The notes under the pieces: generated by a model
The model's database searches: none
Told to the model about the DNA's origin: nothing
What the model saw: only the letters and a program-made list of their open reading frames with translations
NCBI RefSeq assembly: GCF_000002515.2
Contig: NC_006042.1
Span: 806,001-870,000 of the forward strand
Length of the DNA: 64,000 nucleotides
Origin: Kluyveromyces lactis
Taxonomy: Eukaryota; Ascomycota; Saccharomycetes; Saccharomycetales; Saccharomycetaceae
Direction of reading: 5' to 3'
Position numbers and translations under genes: made by a program
Part shown: piece by piece, positions 20,574-35,004 of the stretch
How the letters are laid out: each line of letters begins with the position of its first letter
How positions within the stretch are numbered: position 1 is the first letter of the stretch

Positions 20574-22685
20574 ATGTTTCTAAGGTTACTCCTCCATACA
20601 TGGAGGAAATGCCGATCAATCCTGCTTTTGCTCATTACTGCAAGCGTTTTATTCTACTATACCTTTGAAAATGAGATTGAGCATCTTAATTCTTTTGCAT
20701 ACACTGATTCTTTACCATTGATTCAGAACCAAGATTCGCATAATGCTCCTGTAGCTGGTTCTGCAGATAAAATTACACACGATGAAATATCCAAGGAGCT
20801 GACCGATAAGTCGAGTTTGTCTGAAAAGAATAAGTATTTCCCCATATTGCTAGAGAATAGCGACGAAGCCTTGAAGTATCGGTCGGAAAATTATGACAGT
20901 AAGGAGCCATTCCACCCCTTCCATCCTTTCTATGAGAAAAAAACTGTTATACCTTACAAACAAATTAGCAAACAGTATCCGCAATTGAATCGAGTGTCAT
21001 CTATTCATTCGAACGCTTTAATAAAGGACGAGCTATTGTATCATTGGACAGCTAGAATAAACCGCATTACAGACCATGCCTACTTGGATTTGCAAACAAA
21101 TATTTCCATTTTGTCTACGGACTCACTTTTACAGCGAAATGAATCACTTCTTACCGTGACCGCTGTACTTAATAAGTTTGATGACCCAATGGATCAACGG
21201 GTCTGGTCATCTGAGATTTTAGGTTCATTATTAGCTGTAATTGGTAATAGGAAAGAGAAGAATCCTGAATTGTTACAGTTGATAACGATAATAGGTGAAA
21301 TGTTGCTCCGCAGTTACGACACTCCAAACTATTTACCGCAGATTCCTTTCTTTTGGAAAACATCTGTCCCAAATCGATACGCTTTCAAAAAGACAAAAAC
21401 TAGCATGTTAGCAACTAATATACTTGAGTTTCTTACTTTGTCACACATAACTAATGACCCACAATTTGACTCAGTTGTTTCTCACTCTTTGCAGACGATG
21501 TCAAGATCCGTGCTTTTATTCGATATAGATTACCTTTTCCCTTCCTTTGTTGACGCAAGTGGTTGTAAACCTTTATCTGATGAAAAAATTGCAAAAGGAG
21601 ACCACCTTCGTGAATCCAACGTTTTGAAGTCTATGCAAAATGGTAAGTATATTCATTGTGTTATCAAGGAATCGCTACTTCCTCAACATAATGTCGATGG
21701 AAATCCCATTACACTGGATACAATCGATTTATACTTGACCGTTTTGAAGGCTTATCATCTTAATAACGGTAATCTGTTTGAGAAAAGAGAGGCTGAAAAG
21801 TCTATCACTAAATCGTTGTTACACTCAATTAAGATGATAAATGACACAATGCTATTTCAGCCGTGGCTTCCATCTGATTTAGAGGATCTTTTGCTTCCAA
21901 CCAGTATTAAAACAAACATTCATTTCGACGTTTTAGAGGATAGAAACGAAGTCTCTATCGGGAAAGAATACAAGGTGACGCCAGATGGTGCTAAAATGAG
22001 TTCACTTTTATCCATATCTAGCGTTTTGTTTAATGATTCATCATTGATCGAGCAAGCAAAGGCTATCACTAAGGGGTATTACGAATTATACAAGTTGTTA
22101 GATCAAATTCCAGATGTTGTGGCATTGGATAGAAAACTTCCTACTTTCGGAATGTTTGATCCAACTGCTAAGATTGCGCTAATCAAATCTGGACACTATA
22201 AATCAAACACCATGCAGCAAGGCGTCAAAATTACGGAAACGACAGAAGACAAATCAAAACACTATACGAACACGGATGCGCACAGCTTCTCACCCAACGT
22301 CAAAGACATAAATGAAGAACAATTGTGTTGGAAGCTGCATACTTGGCCGTTTTATGTCAATGATATGGTGGTATCAACAAGGCCACCTTTCGAACTCATT
22401 GAGTCGTTAATTTATCTTTACAAAATAACCGAAGACTATCAATGGAAGCTCATCGGTGAAGATCTTATGCATAGCATCGAATGGTCACAATTAACCGTAG
22501 CGGATACGGGAAAGTTAGTAAGGTTATTTTATGCATTGTTTGAGGATCACGTTAATATTGATGAATACGTCATAAACAGCAAGTACCATTTCATTGCCAG
22601 ACAATTTGAGGTTAATCCGACTTCTAAACGGATTTATCATACCTTTGACGACATAAAAGAAACCAACAAGCTAATGAACCCGTAA
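20574..22685 (+). CDS. MNL2: Mnl2-like glycosyl hydrolase family 47 protein
   Basis: The 703-residue protein has a short basic N-terminus followed by one hydrophobic anchor (about residues 15-29), giving a type II membrane protein with a lumenal domain. The rest resembles the divergent alpha-1,2-mannosidase fold of Mnl2 (YLR057W), implicated in glycoprotein degradation from the endoplasmic reticulum. It is shorter than S. cerevisiae Mnl2 (849). Assignment rests on gene order (ERG3, MNL2, SHM2) and general similarity; I could not confirm each catalytic acidic residue. Confidence 0.8.
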   Translation: MFLRLLLHTWRKCRSILLLLITASVLFYYTFENEIEHLNSFAYTDSLPLIQNQDSHNAPVAGSADKITHDEISKELTDKSSLSEKNKYFPILLENSDEALKYRSENYDSKEPFHPFHPFYEKKTVIPYKQISKQYPQLNRVSSIHSNALIKDELLYHWTARINRITDHAYLDLQTNISILSTDSLLQRNESLLTVTAVLNKFDDPMDQRVWSSEILGSLLAVIGNRKEKNPELLQLITIIGEMLLRSYDTPNYLPQIPFFWKTSVPNRYAFKKTKTSMLATNILEFLTLSHITNDPQFDSVVSHSLQTMSRSVLLFDIDYLFPSFVDASGCKPLSDEKIAKGDHLRESNVLKSMQNGKYIHCVIKESLLPQHNVDGNPITLDTIDLYLTVLKAYHLNNGNLFEKREAEKSITKSLLHSIKMINDTMLFQPWLPSDLEDLLLPTSIKTNIHFDVLEDRNEVSIGKEYKVTPDGAKMSSLLSISSVLFNDSSLIEQAKAITKGYYELYKLLDQIPDVVALDRKLPTFGMFDPTAKIALIKSGHYKSNTMQQGVKITETTEDKSKHYTNTDAHSFSPNVKDINEEQLCWKLHTWPFYVNDMVVSTRPPFELIESLIYLYKITEDYQWKLIGEDLMHSIEWSQLTVADTGKLVRLFYALFEDHVNIDEYVINSKYHFIARQFEVNPTSKRIYHTFDDIKETNKLMNP

Positions 22686-26335: not shown

Positions 26336-27059
26336 GGCTTTTTTGTTTTATTTTCTGGGGTTCTATGAGTCTTTATGCTTAAGTCTATTTTTTTTTGCCC
26401 AACTCTTGCTTGATCCGCTTTGACAATCTATCTAACTTAGTTGGTATAACGGCTTCTGTTATTAGTTATATTTCTTTGCCTCTTGCCTGGCAAAACTTTA
26501 AAGCGACTTGCTCAAAAGAGACTTTTTTAACTGTTCCACATTTAAATGAGTCTTTCGGTCTTTTCTTAATATTGGAGCGCAATCGGATCAAGAAAAAAAG
26601 GTTAGTATGATTCGGAGAAGACCGATTAAAGGACCGACGGAAGAGAAGACAGGATAAAGCAAGATAGAGGTAGTCATGTGACGAAGTAGATTATATCATT
26701 CTGTTCCAAAAACAAAAGAATATCTTTCTGCTATTTAGTGATACTCAACAGTCGCTGCGTAAGGATGAACGCGCGCCACATTAAATACATAAGATACAGA
26801 GAGATACATATATACTTATCTTAAAATAAAATAATATCGTGGATTGTCGAATGTCATGATATGCTGTCATACAAGCACTCTGATTCGGCTGGAATTGTTG
26901 AATGGAAGCCATATAATAGTAGTACCCATTGTAAAAAAAGATTGAATAGTAGTAGAAAACAAAAAGAAGATCCGAAAATGATATAAGAATAAAGGTAAGA
27001 AAAGGGGAAACCAATGTTAAACTTCATGAGAGGCCTCCGTCACCTCTCGAGTGTCTGGT
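26336..27059. other. AGX1 promoter and HAC1 3' untranslated region
   Basis: No gene is seen. The part next to 27059 should be the HAC1 3' untranslated region, where S. cerevisiae carries a stem-loop that docks the mRNA on Ire1; I could not identify an equivalent with confidence. Confidence 0.55.
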
Positions 27060-28211
27060 CTAATCCATAAGATCGTCAAAGTCCACGGCTAACATACTTG
27101 ACTGCGCTTCGGGCAGAGAAGTAAAAAATACTCGCATATACAATGTAAAGACATCACGCTTGTGATATTATCTCTTAACATTTGGCAAAAACACACACAC
27201 AGGTGTTTGACCCTTGAAAAGGGCAAACTGGGAAAGAAGAGAAATGAGAGAGGAATAAAGGAGCTTGTATTAGCTGTGAGACGGCTAGATTTGACTGATT
27301 ATTGACTGGATACAACGTGGTGATCATGTCTCTTCTCTTCTTTCGCATAAGTGTCTGTGTCCTGGTATATGCTGAGTATCGTATACTTTTCATGTTACAA
27401 TCACTGCTGGATTGCGCCATGTGTCAAGGCCGATTGGACTTATTATATCTGATGGTTCAAGTTCAGACAAGTCGGAGTTTAGTTCAGGAGGTACCGTCAA
27501 CAAGAGGTTCCAACCTTCGCCAGTTTCCTGGTTTCTCATATCTATATTTTTGTTGTCGCTGTTGGTACCATCTTCAGCGATGAAGGAAATTCCCACATCG
27601 TTTAGATCAGCATCGCCATTATTTTCTAAAAGCATCGAATGGTCTTCTTCGAGCTTTACCACAGGAGTAGATGATAGTTGGTAATTCTGTTGTCCCAAGA
27701 TGTAATTCAAAGAATTGTTATCTTCGTCAAGCATACCATTGTCAGTTACCATTCCATGCGGTAGATTCGAAGGAGAAGAAGAGGATGAAGAACTACTTAT
27801 TGATGTCGAATGACTTGAATGAGAATAATGGTCCTTCTTATCAGGACTAGACGTTAGACTCTCTGGAGAGTCTAGCATCCCGGTGTTACTGTCATGAGAA
27901 GAAATACTTCCAGAATCACTGACTTGCATTTCTCTCCATTGTTCAACCATCCCGCTAAGCTTCGCGTTATTCTCACTCAAAATATCCAAATCAACCATTT
28001 TCAAAATGCCTTCCAATAGATGACATTTCTCTTCCAACCGTTGCACATGCAAACGTTTCTTCTCACGAGATTGATGTGCAGCCCTACGGTTACGCAAAAT
28101 TCTCTCGATCCTTCTCTGCTCCTTCTCTTCCTGAGTCTTTGCCCGTTTCCTTGGTGGTAATGTGGGCTTAAAGTTCACTGGAATATCACTCACGCTGTTT
28201 TTTCCTGTCAT
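27060..28211 (-). CDS. HAC1: bZIP factor of the unfolded protein response, with Ire1-spliced intron
   Basis: Exon 1 is 28211-27407 (268 codons plus one base) and exon 2 is 27109-27060. Splicing gives 284 residues; without splicing the frame runs to 27390 and gives 273. The bZIP basic region (about residues 22-50, ERILRNRRAAHQSREKKR) and leucine zipper follow a proline-rich start. The middle is Ser-rich. After splicing, the tail changes from AVIVT to EAQSSMLAVDFDDLMD. EAQS also begins exon 2 of S. cerevisiae Hac1, and an acidic-hydrophobic tail fits an activation domain. Order AGX1-HAC1-REX2 fits an unduplicated ancestor. Confidence 0.95.
27110..27406 (-). other. HAC1 non-spliceosomal intron (Ire1/tRNA-ligase type)
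   Basis: The 297-base intron lacks GT-AG spliceosomal ends. At the 5' end a six-pair stem (27397-27402 with 27410-27415) holds the seven-base loop CAGCAGU, cut after its first G. At the 3' end a four-pair GC stem (27102-27105 with 27113-27116) holds loop CCGAAGC, cut after its G. Both loops fit the Ire1 pattern CNGNNGN. The S. cerevisiae intron is 252 bases. Confidence 0.9.
27274..27299 (-). promoter_or_regulatory. intron arm of the HAC1 translational attenuator
   Basis: Bases 27274-27289 of the intron can pair with 28250-28265 of the 5' leader over 16 consecutive pairs including one G-U. After a three-base bulge, 27293-27299 pair with 28243-28249 for seven more. In S. cerevisiae the same kind of leader-intron duplex blocks translation of unspliced HAC1 mRNA. 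Confidence 0.85.
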
Positions 28212-28716
28212 AATGAATTTGTAATATCTTAGCTTCTTATTTATCAGTCTCTAACCGTCTCACAGGTTGTTTATCCCAATACAAGTTATTTTGTCTCTGA
28301 GGGTGGAAGATACTTAAAAAATATATAAGATGAGCAATAGTACATTCTTAAAGCTATCGAAACATGGATTAAGAACACATCATCATATTCAATCTCCTTA
28401 TATACTTTTTCTCACCTGAAACCAAACCGTTAAAAAAGATCTTTGAAAATCTTTCGCTTCCACCCCAGGTCGTTAGGATCAGGATACGTGGGTCATTGCG
28501 ACTGCCAGGAAAAAGCCACCTACACAGAAGTTGACGTAGGAAAACAGTGGCCAAAAACGGTTTCAGTTCTTTTGATATTCTATAAGGGTTATTTTTGGAC
28601 ATGTTTTCCGGGTAATAGAAACGTTGACACGTGATGTCTATTCTATTTTCGTGCCTTGTCCACTGTACTTTTGACATCTTCAGAGACATTTATGAGCATA
28701 TTATATGTATGTACGA
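28212..28716. other. HAC1 leader and promoter, REX2 3' region
   Basis: Besides the attenuator arm, an E-box CACGTG lies at 28628-28633, about 420 bases before the HAC1 ATG. No gene is seen. Confidence 0.55.
28243..28265 (-). promoter_or_regulatory. 5' leader arm of the HAC1 translational attenuator
   Basis: This 23-base segment ends 31 bases before the HAC1 ATG and is complementary to the intron segment 27274-27299. Its closeness to the start codon fits a block on scanning or initiation that is released when the intron is removed. Confidence 0.85.
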
Positions 28717-29637
28717 TCATCTGGCTGATGTTATGACATTATTGCTGCTGTCATCTGCAGAATCAAGTTTGATTTTCTTCTCGGGTTGGGACGAAGTTTC
28801 TAATTCGGGATTTCCCTCGGAATCTCTCTTGTTATCTTCTTTTTCCTTCGCATTCTCAGCTTCTCTTTGTATCTCAGCCTTCCTTCTGTCAACGAATTCT
28901 TTCGTTTCGGTGTCATTTTTGAAATAATGGTTTTCGTAGAACTTCAATTGTTCAATACTCTCCAGGATATCCGCCTTGGCTGTGTGTGCGCCCTTTTTCT
29001 TGTACGTAACGCTTGCTAGTTGTGGGTTATGCCTGCGCGCCACTTCCATGATACTAGATACATCGATAATCCTATAGAACAAATGATCAATCACTTTCGG
29101 GAACTCGTTCAACATGAATAATCGGTCCATGTGTACCGAATTTCCGGCTAGCACACCTTGTCTCTGGTCTGGAATCCATTTCTTGATATAATTTAATAGC
29201 TCTTCCTCCACTTGTTCTCTAGTCTTTACCGAATCCAGTACTTTTTGAGTTAGACCGCTAAATCCATGCTGGTTGATACACCATTCGTTCATGTTGTCCA
29301 TGATGGATTTATCGTAATGGATTACACTCTCGTACCCATCTTCGTCAGCGACGTTTAGTTGTCCATCTGTGATGATACAACATACTTCGATGATTTTGTC
29401 ATTGATATGGTCAAGTCCAGTCATTTCACAATCGATCCATACGATAGGTTGCTTCAACGCACCCGGTATCAGAGCTGCAGGAGGATTCAGCGTCGTGTCA
29501 TTGTTTGAATCGTGTAAAGTAGTCATTATTGTCGTAGGTTGGCTCCAAATTGGACGTTTTTTCAAGTATGGGTTGTAGAACCGCCTTGTTGGTAGTAGAA
29601 TACGTTGGCGTAACCTGGTTCCAATTCCTGTGAACAT
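28717..29637 (-). CDS. REX2: mitochondrial oligoribonuclease Rex2
   Basis: The 306-residue protein is a DEDDh 3'-5' exonuclease that degrades short RNA oligomers in mitochondria. The acidic residues are visible in VWIDCEMTGLD (about residue 67), in GNSVHMDRLF, and in the H-x-D of HTAKADILES. The N-terminus is rich in Arg without acids (MFTGIGTRLRQRI), a good presequence. I chose ATG 29637; the frame opens nine codons earlier at a TTG. A Lys/Glu-rich tail of about 50 residues makes it longer than S. cerevisiae Rex2 (269). Confidence 0.92.
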   Translation of the reverse strand: MFTGIGTRLRQRILLPTRRFYNPYLKKRPIWSQPTTIMTTLHDSNNDTTLNPPAALIPGALKQPIVWIDCEMTGLDHINDKIIEVCCIITDGQLNVADEDGYESVIHYDKSIMDNMNEWCINQHGFSGLTQKVLDSVKTREQVEEELLNYIKKWIPDQRQGVLAGNSVHMDRLFMLNEFPKVIDHLFYRIIDVSSIMEVARRHNPQLASVTYKKKGAHTAKADILESIEQLKFYENHYFKNDTETKEFVDRRKAEIQREAENAKEKEDNKRDSEGNPELETSSQPEKKIKLDSADDSSNNVITSAR

Positions 29638-30286: not shown

Positions 30287-33200
30287 ATGGAACAAGATTC
30301 TGACGAGGCAATCTCTGTCTCGTCTTCTAATTACGACAAATATTTGAGATTAGCCACCGATAAAAACCCTAGTATACTTTTAGAACTTGACTTACAGGGA
30401 AATGTTAAACACCTTAGCAAAGTATGGAACACCGTCATAGGAACCAATAGACTTAAGATCTTGGGGAATCCAGTCTCAAACATCATCATAGGAAGCGATT
30501 ATGATAAGTCTGTTTTCCATCGTGCCTTGAATATGATGCTTGAAGATGATAATAGTTATAGAGTCAAATTTCTGACGGAAACCGGCGATTTAATGGGTGA
30601 TACAGATCAATTGGGGTTGTCGAGCTCTCCTTCTAAATCCTCCGATTCTTCTTCTGTGAGTTCAAGTAGTGACGAAATCAATGCTGAAACTATTAGAAAC
30701 GATAACAATGAGCTTATAGATGCAGAATGGCACGGAAATGGGGATACCATAGAATTAGAAGCGCAAGGAATCTTAATACATGATATTTATACCAAAAAAC
30801 CATCGCACACTATGTGGATAGTAAAACCTCTTTATGATATTGATGAGTTAGATAATTTGCCGTATGATTTGGTAAAGAGATTAGGATTTGGGGCAAAACT
30901 TTTCTCCCAATATTTGCAGAAGATAGAAGATATGATGATCCTAGACGAGATGGATCTTCCCACTCCTAATTTCGAATTATGTCGAGTTTGTGAAGTTATG
31001 GTTCCTACATGGTGGCTCGAAACTCACTCTCAGATTTGCGTTTGTGAGCACAGACTAGAAAGTGTGGTGCAAACTGCACACGACGAGCTACTAGAACAGA
31101 AAGGTTTAATCGAATCGATTATTGGATCATTAGAAGAACAAGAGTACCCTCCCATTACAGAATATAAGAATTATCCACTACCCCAAATTAATAGTAGGGG
31201 AAGATCACCAAGTCCGCCATTCCATGAATCGAATGGATCCTATCGGTCATCTTCAATGGAAAGATCAAGTTCCTCACTGCTGAAATCATCTACTAATATT
31301 ATGCAGCAAAACATGAGATTCCCATTTAAACCGCTATATATGTTGAAAGAGCTATGTGAAGAGGCAATTCAAGTCAATACAAGCCAGTTGAAAATGCAAT
31401 CTGAAGAAATATACAATAATGGTATTCTGCACCCAACTTCAACATTCTATCAATTTTCCCCAAATACTGAATTGCATATTGATCATGTTTTGAATTGGAA
31501 ATCTTCATTTGAAGTTTCAGATCCTGCCATAAATTTATTGATACAGGACACCATGGCTATATGTAGACAGAAGGTCGAAACTGTCATAAGAATGGACAAC
31601 ACTCTCAAATATTCACACAAAGTAAAGAATGAGGTGGATTTGTCAATTTCACAATTAATCAAAGAAAGGATTCACAGCAATCGATTGAATGTTTCTTACA
31701 CTTTAGATCTAGTGCCGAATATCAATTCGGGACCAGGCTCAGCTGTTAATCTAGGAACACCTTCATCACCAAAATTAGCCACCCCTCTTCCACAACGGCT
31801 ACCATCATCCAGTAACCTATTCTCTGATTCTTATATTGGCACCGACACTATTCCAGAACCTCATCCATTTGGCAAATCAAATGCTGACATTGCAAGATCT
31901 TACTTTGAAAACTCCGGTTCAAATTCTGCACATGCATCTAAATCTGTAACTCCTAAACAATCAGTAGGAGAGCAAGATTCTAAGATAACTACTGATGATA
32001 TTTCAATGGGCGAAGGATTGGAAACTTCTATGGATAGCCGATCTAATCCTTCTACTCCTAAGTTTGCCCTGAACAATTATTTTCATCTTCCCAAATTAAC
32101 AAGTAGTATCAGTCTCACTCCTCGAAGAGGATCACCTGTAAACTTCTCTACTCCTACCTCGTATACTCAGAATGGTGCTCAAATCAATCCAAATTATTTT
32201 TCTTCCGCCAATATCATGGGTTCGTTATCCACTACGAAGTCGATCACTGACAATTCGCCGATGCTCTCGCCCTTCATTTCCGGTTCTGAAGCAATGCAAC
32301 TATCTGATAGTAATCAACATCGCAATCAACCTCTTTCACCGCTACTGCTTCCAACCACAGGTAAATCGATTATTCCTTCGATACGAGACTACGATGTGAT
32401 TAAACCCATCAGTAAGGGCGCCTATGGGAGTGTCTACCTTGCTAAAAAGCGTGTCACTGGAGAGTATTTTGCTATCAAGGTACTCAAGAAATCAGATATG
32501 ATCGCCAAGAATCAGGTAACGAATGTCAAATCGGAACGCGCAATAATGATGGTTCAGAGTGATAAGCCATATGTTGCTAGATTATATGCAACGTTTCAAA
32601 ACAAAGAGAATTTATTTTTGGTGATGCAGTACTTGAGCGGAGGAGATATGGCTACTTTAATTAAAATGATGGGTAATTTGCCAGAAAAATGGGCAAAGCA
32701 GTATATTTGTGAAGTGATCTCAGGTGTTGATGACATGCATCAAAATGGTATCATTCACCATGATTTGAAACCAGACAATTTGTTGATTGATTCTTTAGGT
32801 CATATCAAATTGACAGACTTTGGGTTGTCACGTATGGGTCTTTTGCGTCGTCATAAAGAGAAGAGGCGTAACAGCCAAATTCAAAGTTCAAGAAATCCCA
32901 GTTTCACTTGTGATAGCTCTGTGACGCGTAAAAATTCTGTCACAGATTCATTACAATCCGTACCGGGCGCGGCTGAGAATATTTATGACTTAGTCAAAAA
33001 GACTAAAGGTCCCAATCATCCTCTAGCGCACATTCACAATCTCCATCAACTGTTACCGACGTACCTTATTTGAAAAGAAATGGTTCCCACGTTTCATTTA
33101 CAATGGCTGGTCTTTCACGCTCCGGCACGCCTCCCTTATCTGCAACTTTGATGTCAACATCAGATCATCTAAGTATTCCCAACCAAAATCATCACCATCA

Positions 33201-35004
33201 TTCCAGGACAAACTCAAACCTTTCTGAGACCAATGTCCACGATTCGCCTAAGGATTTGTCTTTATTCAATCCCAATGAATCTAAGAATTTTTTTGGAACT
33301 CCAGACTATCTCGCGCCAGAAACTATAAAGGGTACTGGCGAAAGTGATACTTGTGATTGGTGGTCCGTTGGGTGCATATTTTTTGAGTTTTTGTTTGGAT
33401 ATCCCCCATTTCATGGTACAACAGTAGATGAAGTCTTCGAAAATATAATTGGTGGTGTCATACGCTGGCCAGAATTCCCTGATGCGGAGACAGAAATGGA
33501 ATACATATCACCAGATGCAAAAGATTTGGTAATTAAGTTATTGGTGCTTGATCCGAACAAGAGACTTGGTGCCAGTGGCTCTCAGGAGATCAAAGAGCAT
33601 CCGTACTTCAAAGATGTTGATTGGGACCATGTGTATGACGAGCAACCATCATTTGTACCACGAGTGGAACATCCTGAAGACACTGAGTACTTCGATTTAC
33701 GTGGAGCGTCTCTCGATGAATTTGCTGCTTCGAATTTCGATGAAGATAATGATTATACGATGCTAGACGCCAAAAATGGTACAAAATCACTCGACTCTCA
33801 GTTACATCGGAGACTGTCTGACCAAAGCAGTGGTAGAAACACTCCAAAACAAAGATTAAGTATAAGTTCTGTTCTTGAAATGGTGAACCAAAACTTAGAA
33901 TCACCAACCGCGAACAATTCACCGATTACAAAACATATACCGCTCGCTATCCCTCCACACATGAGAGACAGACGTAGTAGCAAATTGAACGACTCCTCTC
34001 CAGAATTCGGCTCCTTTAACTACAGAAACTTAAATGCTTTAGATAAAGCCAATAAAGATGCAATCACTAGGTTGAAATCGGAACATCTGTCGGAGTACCT
34101 CCACCAGAGAACTTCAAGTTCGTCTTTATCTAGCTCTTCTTCGGAAAACTCAGGTAAGCTGAAACAATCAAGTGCTAATAGTGCACAGGGATCAGTCCCA
34201 ACCTCTATGGGTACACGTAGATCTAACTCTCCTCAAGTACTGAAATGGAATACGAATGCTTCTCCAAGCAGGCGCAACAGTGTCGACACCATGAGCCCTC
34301 AACCGTCAGCGACTAAAAGATTTTCGGACATAGGATCATATCTAACTGAAGAATCTGCTCACGGGAGTTCTTCGACGTCATCTCCGTTAGCATCAAAATT
34401 CAAGTCTCCACTATCACCACCATCAGTAAACGGCACTCTGGGTTCAATTTCAAAATCACGGAAAGTATCAAGAAATAGTTTCGGTTCTACAACGGAGGAT
34501 GATGAGAGACTCTCCGCATTATCAAGGGTAAACACCGTCAGAAAGCTCAGACGACGTAGTGGGCGGAAATCTTCTTCCAACTCGAACGGTATTAGATACA
34601 AGTTGGATGTCTTACTCTGTGAACCTATTCCAATTCATAGATACAGAGTAGCAGAAGACTTGGAAAGCATTGGGTGCTCTGTTGTTTCCGCTGGAAATGG
34701 TGAAGAGTTGGTTCGTCGTGCCACAACAGGCGTAAAGTTTGACCTAATCATCACAGCAATGAAACTTCCAAAATTAGGCGCAATCGATATAGCAAAACTT
34801 ATAAGACATACCAATAGTGTCAATTGCACGACACCAATAGTAGCCTTAACAGTCTATTATCACGACGCCAAAGAATCTAAGGTGTTTGATGATGTCTTGG
34901 AAAAACCTGTAAGCGTGGAACAGTTACGGAAACTTGTGTCCAAATATGCGCTACTTAAGTCACAAAACGAAGAAGACACGCTTCTGAGTGACACAGAATC
35001 TTGA
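30287..35004 (+). CDS. RIM15: Greatwall-family kinase Rim15, frame broken once
   Basis: Rim15 drives entry into quiescence and meiosis downstream of TOR and PKA. The first frame (30287-33073, 928 codons) has a PAS-like domain (about residues 15-95), a C-x2-C...H-x3-C zinc motif (CRVCEVM...HSQIC, about 232-252), and the kinase N-lobe with SKGAYGSVYLAKK, AIKVLKKS, HHDLKPDN and TDFGLSR. The second frame continues (to 35004) with FFGTPDYLAPE, the C-lobe, and a C-terminal receiver-like domain. The switch must occur within 33007-33072, in the unconserved kinase insert. It needs a one-base deletion (or two-base insertion) relative to the ancestor. No intron signals or slippery heptamer are seen. It may be a natural loss or a sequencing error. 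Confidence 0.9.

What the first reader, a model, noticed from the sequence alone, without database searches (positions are those of the whole stretch)
27060..28211. Complete Ire1-type HAC1 intron located to the base
The minus strand shows two seven-base loops of the form CNGNNGN on stems (CAGCAGU at 27403-27409, CCGAAGC at 27106-27112). Joining at the cleavage points removes 297 bases and creates a new 16-residue tail starting EAQS, the same first residues as exon 2 of S. cerevisiae Hac1. The unspliced form stops only five codons past the junction. Ordinary ORF calling would give the wrong C-terminus and miss the exon.
Basis: partly seen in the sequence, partly recalled or inferred. Interest (0 to 1): 0.8.

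Follow-up and report, generated by a model that had tools for sequence, protein, structure and literature searches.

The report
Known HAC1 stress-response intron, Kluyveromyces lactis

Summary
On the minus strand, exon 1 (805 nt), a 297-nt intron and 50 nt of exon 2 fill 27060-28211. The splice loops lie at 27409-27403 (CAGCAGT, 6-bp stem) and 27112-27106 (CCGAAGC, 4-bp stem). Joining 27407 to 27109 replaces AVIVT-stop by a 16-residue tail, EAQSSMLAVDFDDLMD, giving 284 residues. Three of 120 listed relatives carry the same junction, WRNP|EAQS; 30 of 120, this ORF included, carry the unspliced WRNP|AV. The genome (10.73 Mb, 7 contigs) holds one IRE1 RNase domain, one tRNA-ligase domain and one HAC1. 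Its hexokinase is identical to PDB 3o08, recalled as K. lactis KlHxk1. A 2018 paper on K. lactis (PMC6116095, passages) gives KlHAC1 as 1152 nt with exons of 805 and 50 nt, a 297-nt intron and a 284-residue product, reports two transcript forms on a Northern blot under ER stress, and intron-5'UTR pairing, which I find at the stated places. Already known, low interest. Left over: a RIM15-like kinase next door is split by a frame break.

The parts
27407..28211 (-). HAC1 exon 1 coding part, 805 nt, with the bZIP match at residues 29-71
   Evidence: Pfam bZIP_2 over its cut-off and bZIP_1 just under its cut-off
27110..27406 (-). Ire1-type intron, 297 nt, with an in-frame stop (unspliced ORF ends at 27390)
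   Evidence: same length in PMC6116095
27403..27409 (-). 5' splice-site loop CAGCAGT on a 6-bp stem; cut after 27407
27106..27112 (-). 3' splice-site loop CCGAAGC on a 4-bp stem; cut after 27110
27060..27109 (-). HAC1 exon 2 coding part, 50 nt including the stop; encodes the tail EAQSSMLAVDFDDLMD together with the last base of exon 1
   Evidence: same junction residues in P0012, P0024 and P0027
28239..28263 (-). 5'UTR stretch (-52 to -28) that pairs with the intron
   Evidence: Coordinates from PMC6116095; pairing reproduced
27276..27303 (-). Intron stretch (+909 to +936) that pairs with the 5'UTR; duplex of the two stretches -33.0 kcal/mol
   Evidence: Coordinates from PMC6116095; pairing reproduced

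Best explanation
This is the HAC1 gene of Kluyveromyces lactis. Its mRNA is made with a 297-nt cytoplasmic intron near the 3' end. Without stress the intron pairs with the 5'UTR and should hold back translation; any leaked product ends in AVIVT. Under ER stress Ire1 cuts in the two seven-base loops, the tRNA ligase joins the exons, and the 284-residue bZIP activator with the tail EAQSSMLAVDFDDLMD is made. Shown here: sequence, hairpins, frame, possible pairing, and presence of IRE1 and tRNA-ligase domains. Shown in print by Northern blot: a second, processed transcript form under stress. Inferred: Ire1 as the cutter in this species, translation block, ligation by Trl1.
For: Exact anatomy. Lengths equal to the published KlHAC1 in the five numbers compared: 1152, 805, 297, 50 nt and 284 aa. 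Junction residues WRNPEAQS in 3 of 120 fetched relatives, and the unspliced counterpart WRNPAV in 30 of 120, this ORF included. The 391-nt region around the intron folds better than 100 of 100 shuffles, z -4.28. One Ribonuc_2-5A domain, in an ORF whose best solved match is IRE1 3fbv; one tRNA_lig_CPD domain; one HAC1. Hexokinase aligned to 3o08 without a difference over 485 residues, recalled as K. lactis KlHxk1. Published intron-5'UTR pairing present as stated.
Against: Nothing found against the identity. Weak points: no transcript data could be read here; the paper says that exon and intron sizes come from sequence analysis, and its Northern blot shows size classes, not the junction base. 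The intron-5'UTR pairing alone is only moderately beyond chance. 3 of 1000 dinucleotide shuffles reach the duplex energy of -62.2 and 1 of 400 mononucleotide shuffles the 16-pair run. But 12 of 430 window tiles, one of them the complement of the UTR itself, have an energy as low or lower, and the intron is not among those tiles as cut; 4 of 430 reach a run of 16 or more: the self tile, the intron tile and two unrelated ones. Rfam gave no related match at E up to 1; I do not know whether it holds a family for these hairpins.
Confidence: 0.98

Rival explanations
1. The gene is a HAC1 orthologue whose intron is no longer cut, as reported for Candida glabrata, so that only the unspliced form works.
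For: PMC6116095 describes C. glabrata HAC1 as unspliced under stress, so loss happens in this family (PMC8002603, lists C. glabrata among species with observed splicing, so the two papers disagree on that species).
Against: Both consensus loops are intact here, while C. glabrata is said to apparently lack the splice consensus; the same paper reports two transcript forms of KlHAC1 under stress.
Confidence: 0.01
2. A chance pair of hairpins; the gene simply ends at 27390.
For: 15 of 505 CNGNNGN sites on the minus strand of the window have stems of 4 bp or more, and one such site (27577) in exon 1 has no evident role.
Against: The joined frame gives WRNPEAQS as in three public relatives, and the published lengths agree exactly.
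Confidence: 0.005

Closest known systems
Kluyveromyces lactis HAC1 (KlHAC1), PMC6116095
   Same: Gene length 1152 nt, exons 805 and 50 nt, intron 297 nt, product 284 aa, pairing stretches -52 to -28 and +909 to +936
   Different: No difference in what I compared; taken as the same gene
Saccharomyces cerevisiae HAC1
   Different: Intron 252 nt against 297 nt; tail 18 against 16 residues; intron-coded end 10 against 5 residues
Candida glabrata HAC1
   Same: Putative intron of 379 nt in an orthologous bZIP gene
   Different: Said to apparently lack the splice consensus and to stay unspliced; PMC8002603 lists it as spliced

Membership tests
HAC1/XBP1 Ire1-type intron | bZIP factor in exon 1 | tested here: met
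   PF07716 23.7 bits against cut-off 22.3; PF00170 25.7 bits, under its cut-off of 27.6; named hits include HAC1 of Eremothecium, Zygosaccharomyces and Saccharomyces
HAC1/XBP1 Ire1-type intron | Seven-base loop CNGNNGN on a stem at both boundaries, cut after the third base | tested here: met
   CAGCAGT and CCGAAGC with 6 and 4 bp; the cut itself was not tested
HAC1/XBP1 Ire1-type intron | Splicing changes the C-terminus in frame, with the family's junction residues | tested here: met
   284 aa, WRNP|EAQS as in P0012, P0024 and P0027, 3 of 120 fetched
HAC1/XBP1 Ire1-type intron | Ire1 and a fungal tRNA ligase present in the genome | tested here: met
   One PF06479 match (best solved match of that ORF is IRE1) and one PF08302 match
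HAC1/XBP1 Ire1-type intron | Cut by Ire1 on ER stress | not testable with these tools
   Northern blot with two forms under 2-deoxyglucose reported in PMC6116095 (passage and legend)
S. cerevisiae-type long HAC1 intron | Intron pairs with the 5'UTR | tested here: met
   Longest run 16 pairs; published stretches -33.0 kcal/mol; only moderate on chance alone
S. cerevisiae-type long HAC1 intron | 3'UTR bipartite element on a stem-loop | tested here: inconclusive
   The paper says it is present in K. lactis; the motif letters were not available to me, and the 60 nt after the stop did not fold into the GAGAGG/CCTCTC hairpin that I expected by eye

The most novel reading that the evidence does not exclude
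The five-residue end AVIVT of the unspliced form acts as a short degron, and the 10-residue degron of S. cerevisiae could have grown from such a short one. Four fetched relatives, P0001 to P0004 (P0001 is this ORF), end identically in WRNPAVIVT, and P0005 and P0006 end in WRNPAVIAT, although P0002-P0006 are only 38-62% identical to the query. PMC8002603 (passages) says the first four residues are the better conserved part and that the need for a degron remains to be tested in other yeasts. Against it: these codons also form the splice stem, which may be the whole cause.
Probability: 0.15. Interest if true: 0.3.

Novelty: already known. Interest (0 to 1): 0.07.

Why it matters
It confirms that raw sequence reading can find a non-spliceosomal intron to the base, and that the gene call for this locus in a public protein set keeps the unspliced end (273-residue form). 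For biology it adds little to the 2018 description.

Tried and rejected
Rfam search of 26500-28800 gave one match at E up to 1 (snoR79, 20.7 bits against a gathering score of 80, E 0.53, plus strand); dropped as chance. ARAGORN with the bacterial code found no tRNA in the window. Hooks and Griffiths-Jones 2011 (PMC3225973), from which PMC8002603 says it took the K. lactis splice sites, is not held and was not read. DNA of related yeasts was not at hand: the window's genome has no relatives in the genome search, and I tried no other collection, so no covariation test on the hairpins was made. Paper searches on the finding were (38, 275 and 28 papers; 20, 20 and 10 listed). One search for a RIM15 frame break in K. 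lactis gave 2 papers; by their listing neither is about it, and I opened neither. The third hairpin at 27577 was not followed.

Full report
Observation. The minus strand of 27060-28211 was read and translated. Exon 1 runs from the ATG at 28211 to 27407 (805 nt), the intron from 27406 to 27110 (297 nt), and the coding part of exon 2 from 27109 to 27060 (50 nt with the stop). The two loops are CAGCAGT (27409-27403) on a stem of 6 bp and CCGAAGC (27112-27106) on a stem of 4 bp. The unspliced ORF ends five codons beyond the junction (AVIVT) and has 273 residues; the spliced frame has 284 and ends in EAQSSMLAVDFDDLMD. The numbers in the finding are right.

Chance. On the window's minus strand 505 sites read CNGNNGN, and 15 of 505 have stems of at least 4 bp with G-U allowed. 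Around the gene end, 26900-27700, there are 3 (27577, 27409, 27112), against a mean of 0.12 in dinucleotide shuffles and 0 of 1000 shuffles with 3 (the printed label '>=2' there stands for the observed number, 3). The 391 nt around the intron fold with z -4.28, 0 of 100 shuffles as good. Local folding draws both hairpins; in the 5' one the first C of the loop pairs with its sixth base, G.

Relatives. A protein search with the spliced form found 385 proteins, of which 120 are listed and were held. The best is the window's own ORF in its unspliced form (273 aa, 100%); the next is from K. dobzhanskii (62%). Three of 120 hold EAQS anywhere, all as WRNPEAQS near the C-terminus: P0012, P0024 and P0027. 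Thirty of 120, the window's own included, hold WRNPAV, the unspliced reading of the same site, and P0001 to P0004 end identically in WRNPAVIVT. The remaining 87 hold neither string and were not sorted.

The machinery. The window lies at C6:806001-870000 of a genome of 10,729,447 bases in 7 contigs. It holds one Ribonuc_2-5A domain, in an ORF whose best solved match is IRE1 3fbv at E 2.9e-178; one tRNA_lig_CPD domain; and one HAC1.

Species. One of the two hexokinase matches of this genome aligns to PDB 3o08 without a difference over 485 residues; I recall 3o08 as K. lactis KlHxk1. The longest contig bearing the same Hac1 protein has 2,602,197 bases, which I recall as the length of K. lactis chromosome F. 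With the HAC1 lengths this makes K. lactis near certain.

Known already. PMC6116095 (Cells 2018, passages and legends) states that KlHAC1 is a 1152-nt gene with exons of 805 and 50 nt and an intron of 297 nt, that the spliced mRNA predicts 284 residues, that two transcript forms are evident after 30 min of 2-deoxyglucose (Northern blot, probe from the first 500 nt of the ORF), that the boundaries can form stem-loops, that +909 to +936 can pair with -52 to -28, and that a 3'UTR bipartite element is conserved. Its legend says that exon and intron sizes were determined by sequence analysis, so the junction base itself is not shown by reads in the passages I saw. PMC8002603 (passages) counts K. 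lactis among species with observed splicing, citing that paper, and took the K. lactis splice sites from Hooks and Griffiths-Jones 2011, which I could not read.

Pairing with the 5'UTR. The stated stretches pair with a computed energy of -33.0 kcal/mol, and the longest unbroken run between 150 nt of 5'UTR and the intron is 16 pairs. As a stand-alone test this is moderate. 3 of 1000 dinucleotide shuffles reach the energy of the best duplex, -62.2, and 1 of 400 mononucleotide shuffles the run. Of 430 window tiles of 297 nt, 12 have an energy of -62.2 or lower, one of them the complement of the UTR itself; 4 reach a run of 16 or more, namely that self tile, the tile with the intron stretch (27173-27469) and two unrelated tiles. 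The support comes from the agreement with the published analogous structure, not from these statistics.

Verdict. A real, correctly placed and correctly interpreted Ire1-type HAC1 intron, in a species where it was already described with the same lengths. Not new.

Noticed in passing
30287-33073 and 33103-35004, +: Two adjacent ORFs (928 and 633 aa) carry the first and second half of one protein kinase domain, the second also a response-regulator domain; the first is closest to greatwall in the PDB. RIM15 by recall. The downstream frame opens at 33007 and overlaps the first ORF to its stop at 33073: a natural frame break or a sequencing error.
   Followed up: partly
20574-22685, +: Glycosyl hydrolase family 47 protein of 703 aa, perhaps the ERAD mannosidase HTM1/MNL1 (recalled), which would be a protein-quality-control gene near HAC1.
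   Followed up: no
28717-29637, -: RNase_T exonuclease ORF of 306 aa upstream of HAC1 on the same strand, perhaps REX4 (recalled).
   Followed up: no
27571-27577, -: A third CNGNNGN loop (CTGAAGA) on a 4-bp stem inside HAC1 exon 1; probably chance, but a possible extra Ire1 site.
   Followed up: no
27390-27406, - (protein P0001): The public protein identical to this ORF is the unspliced 273-residue form, listed with 79 contigs: that gene call misses exon 2. P0002 to P0004 also end in WRNPAVIVT.
   Followed up: partly
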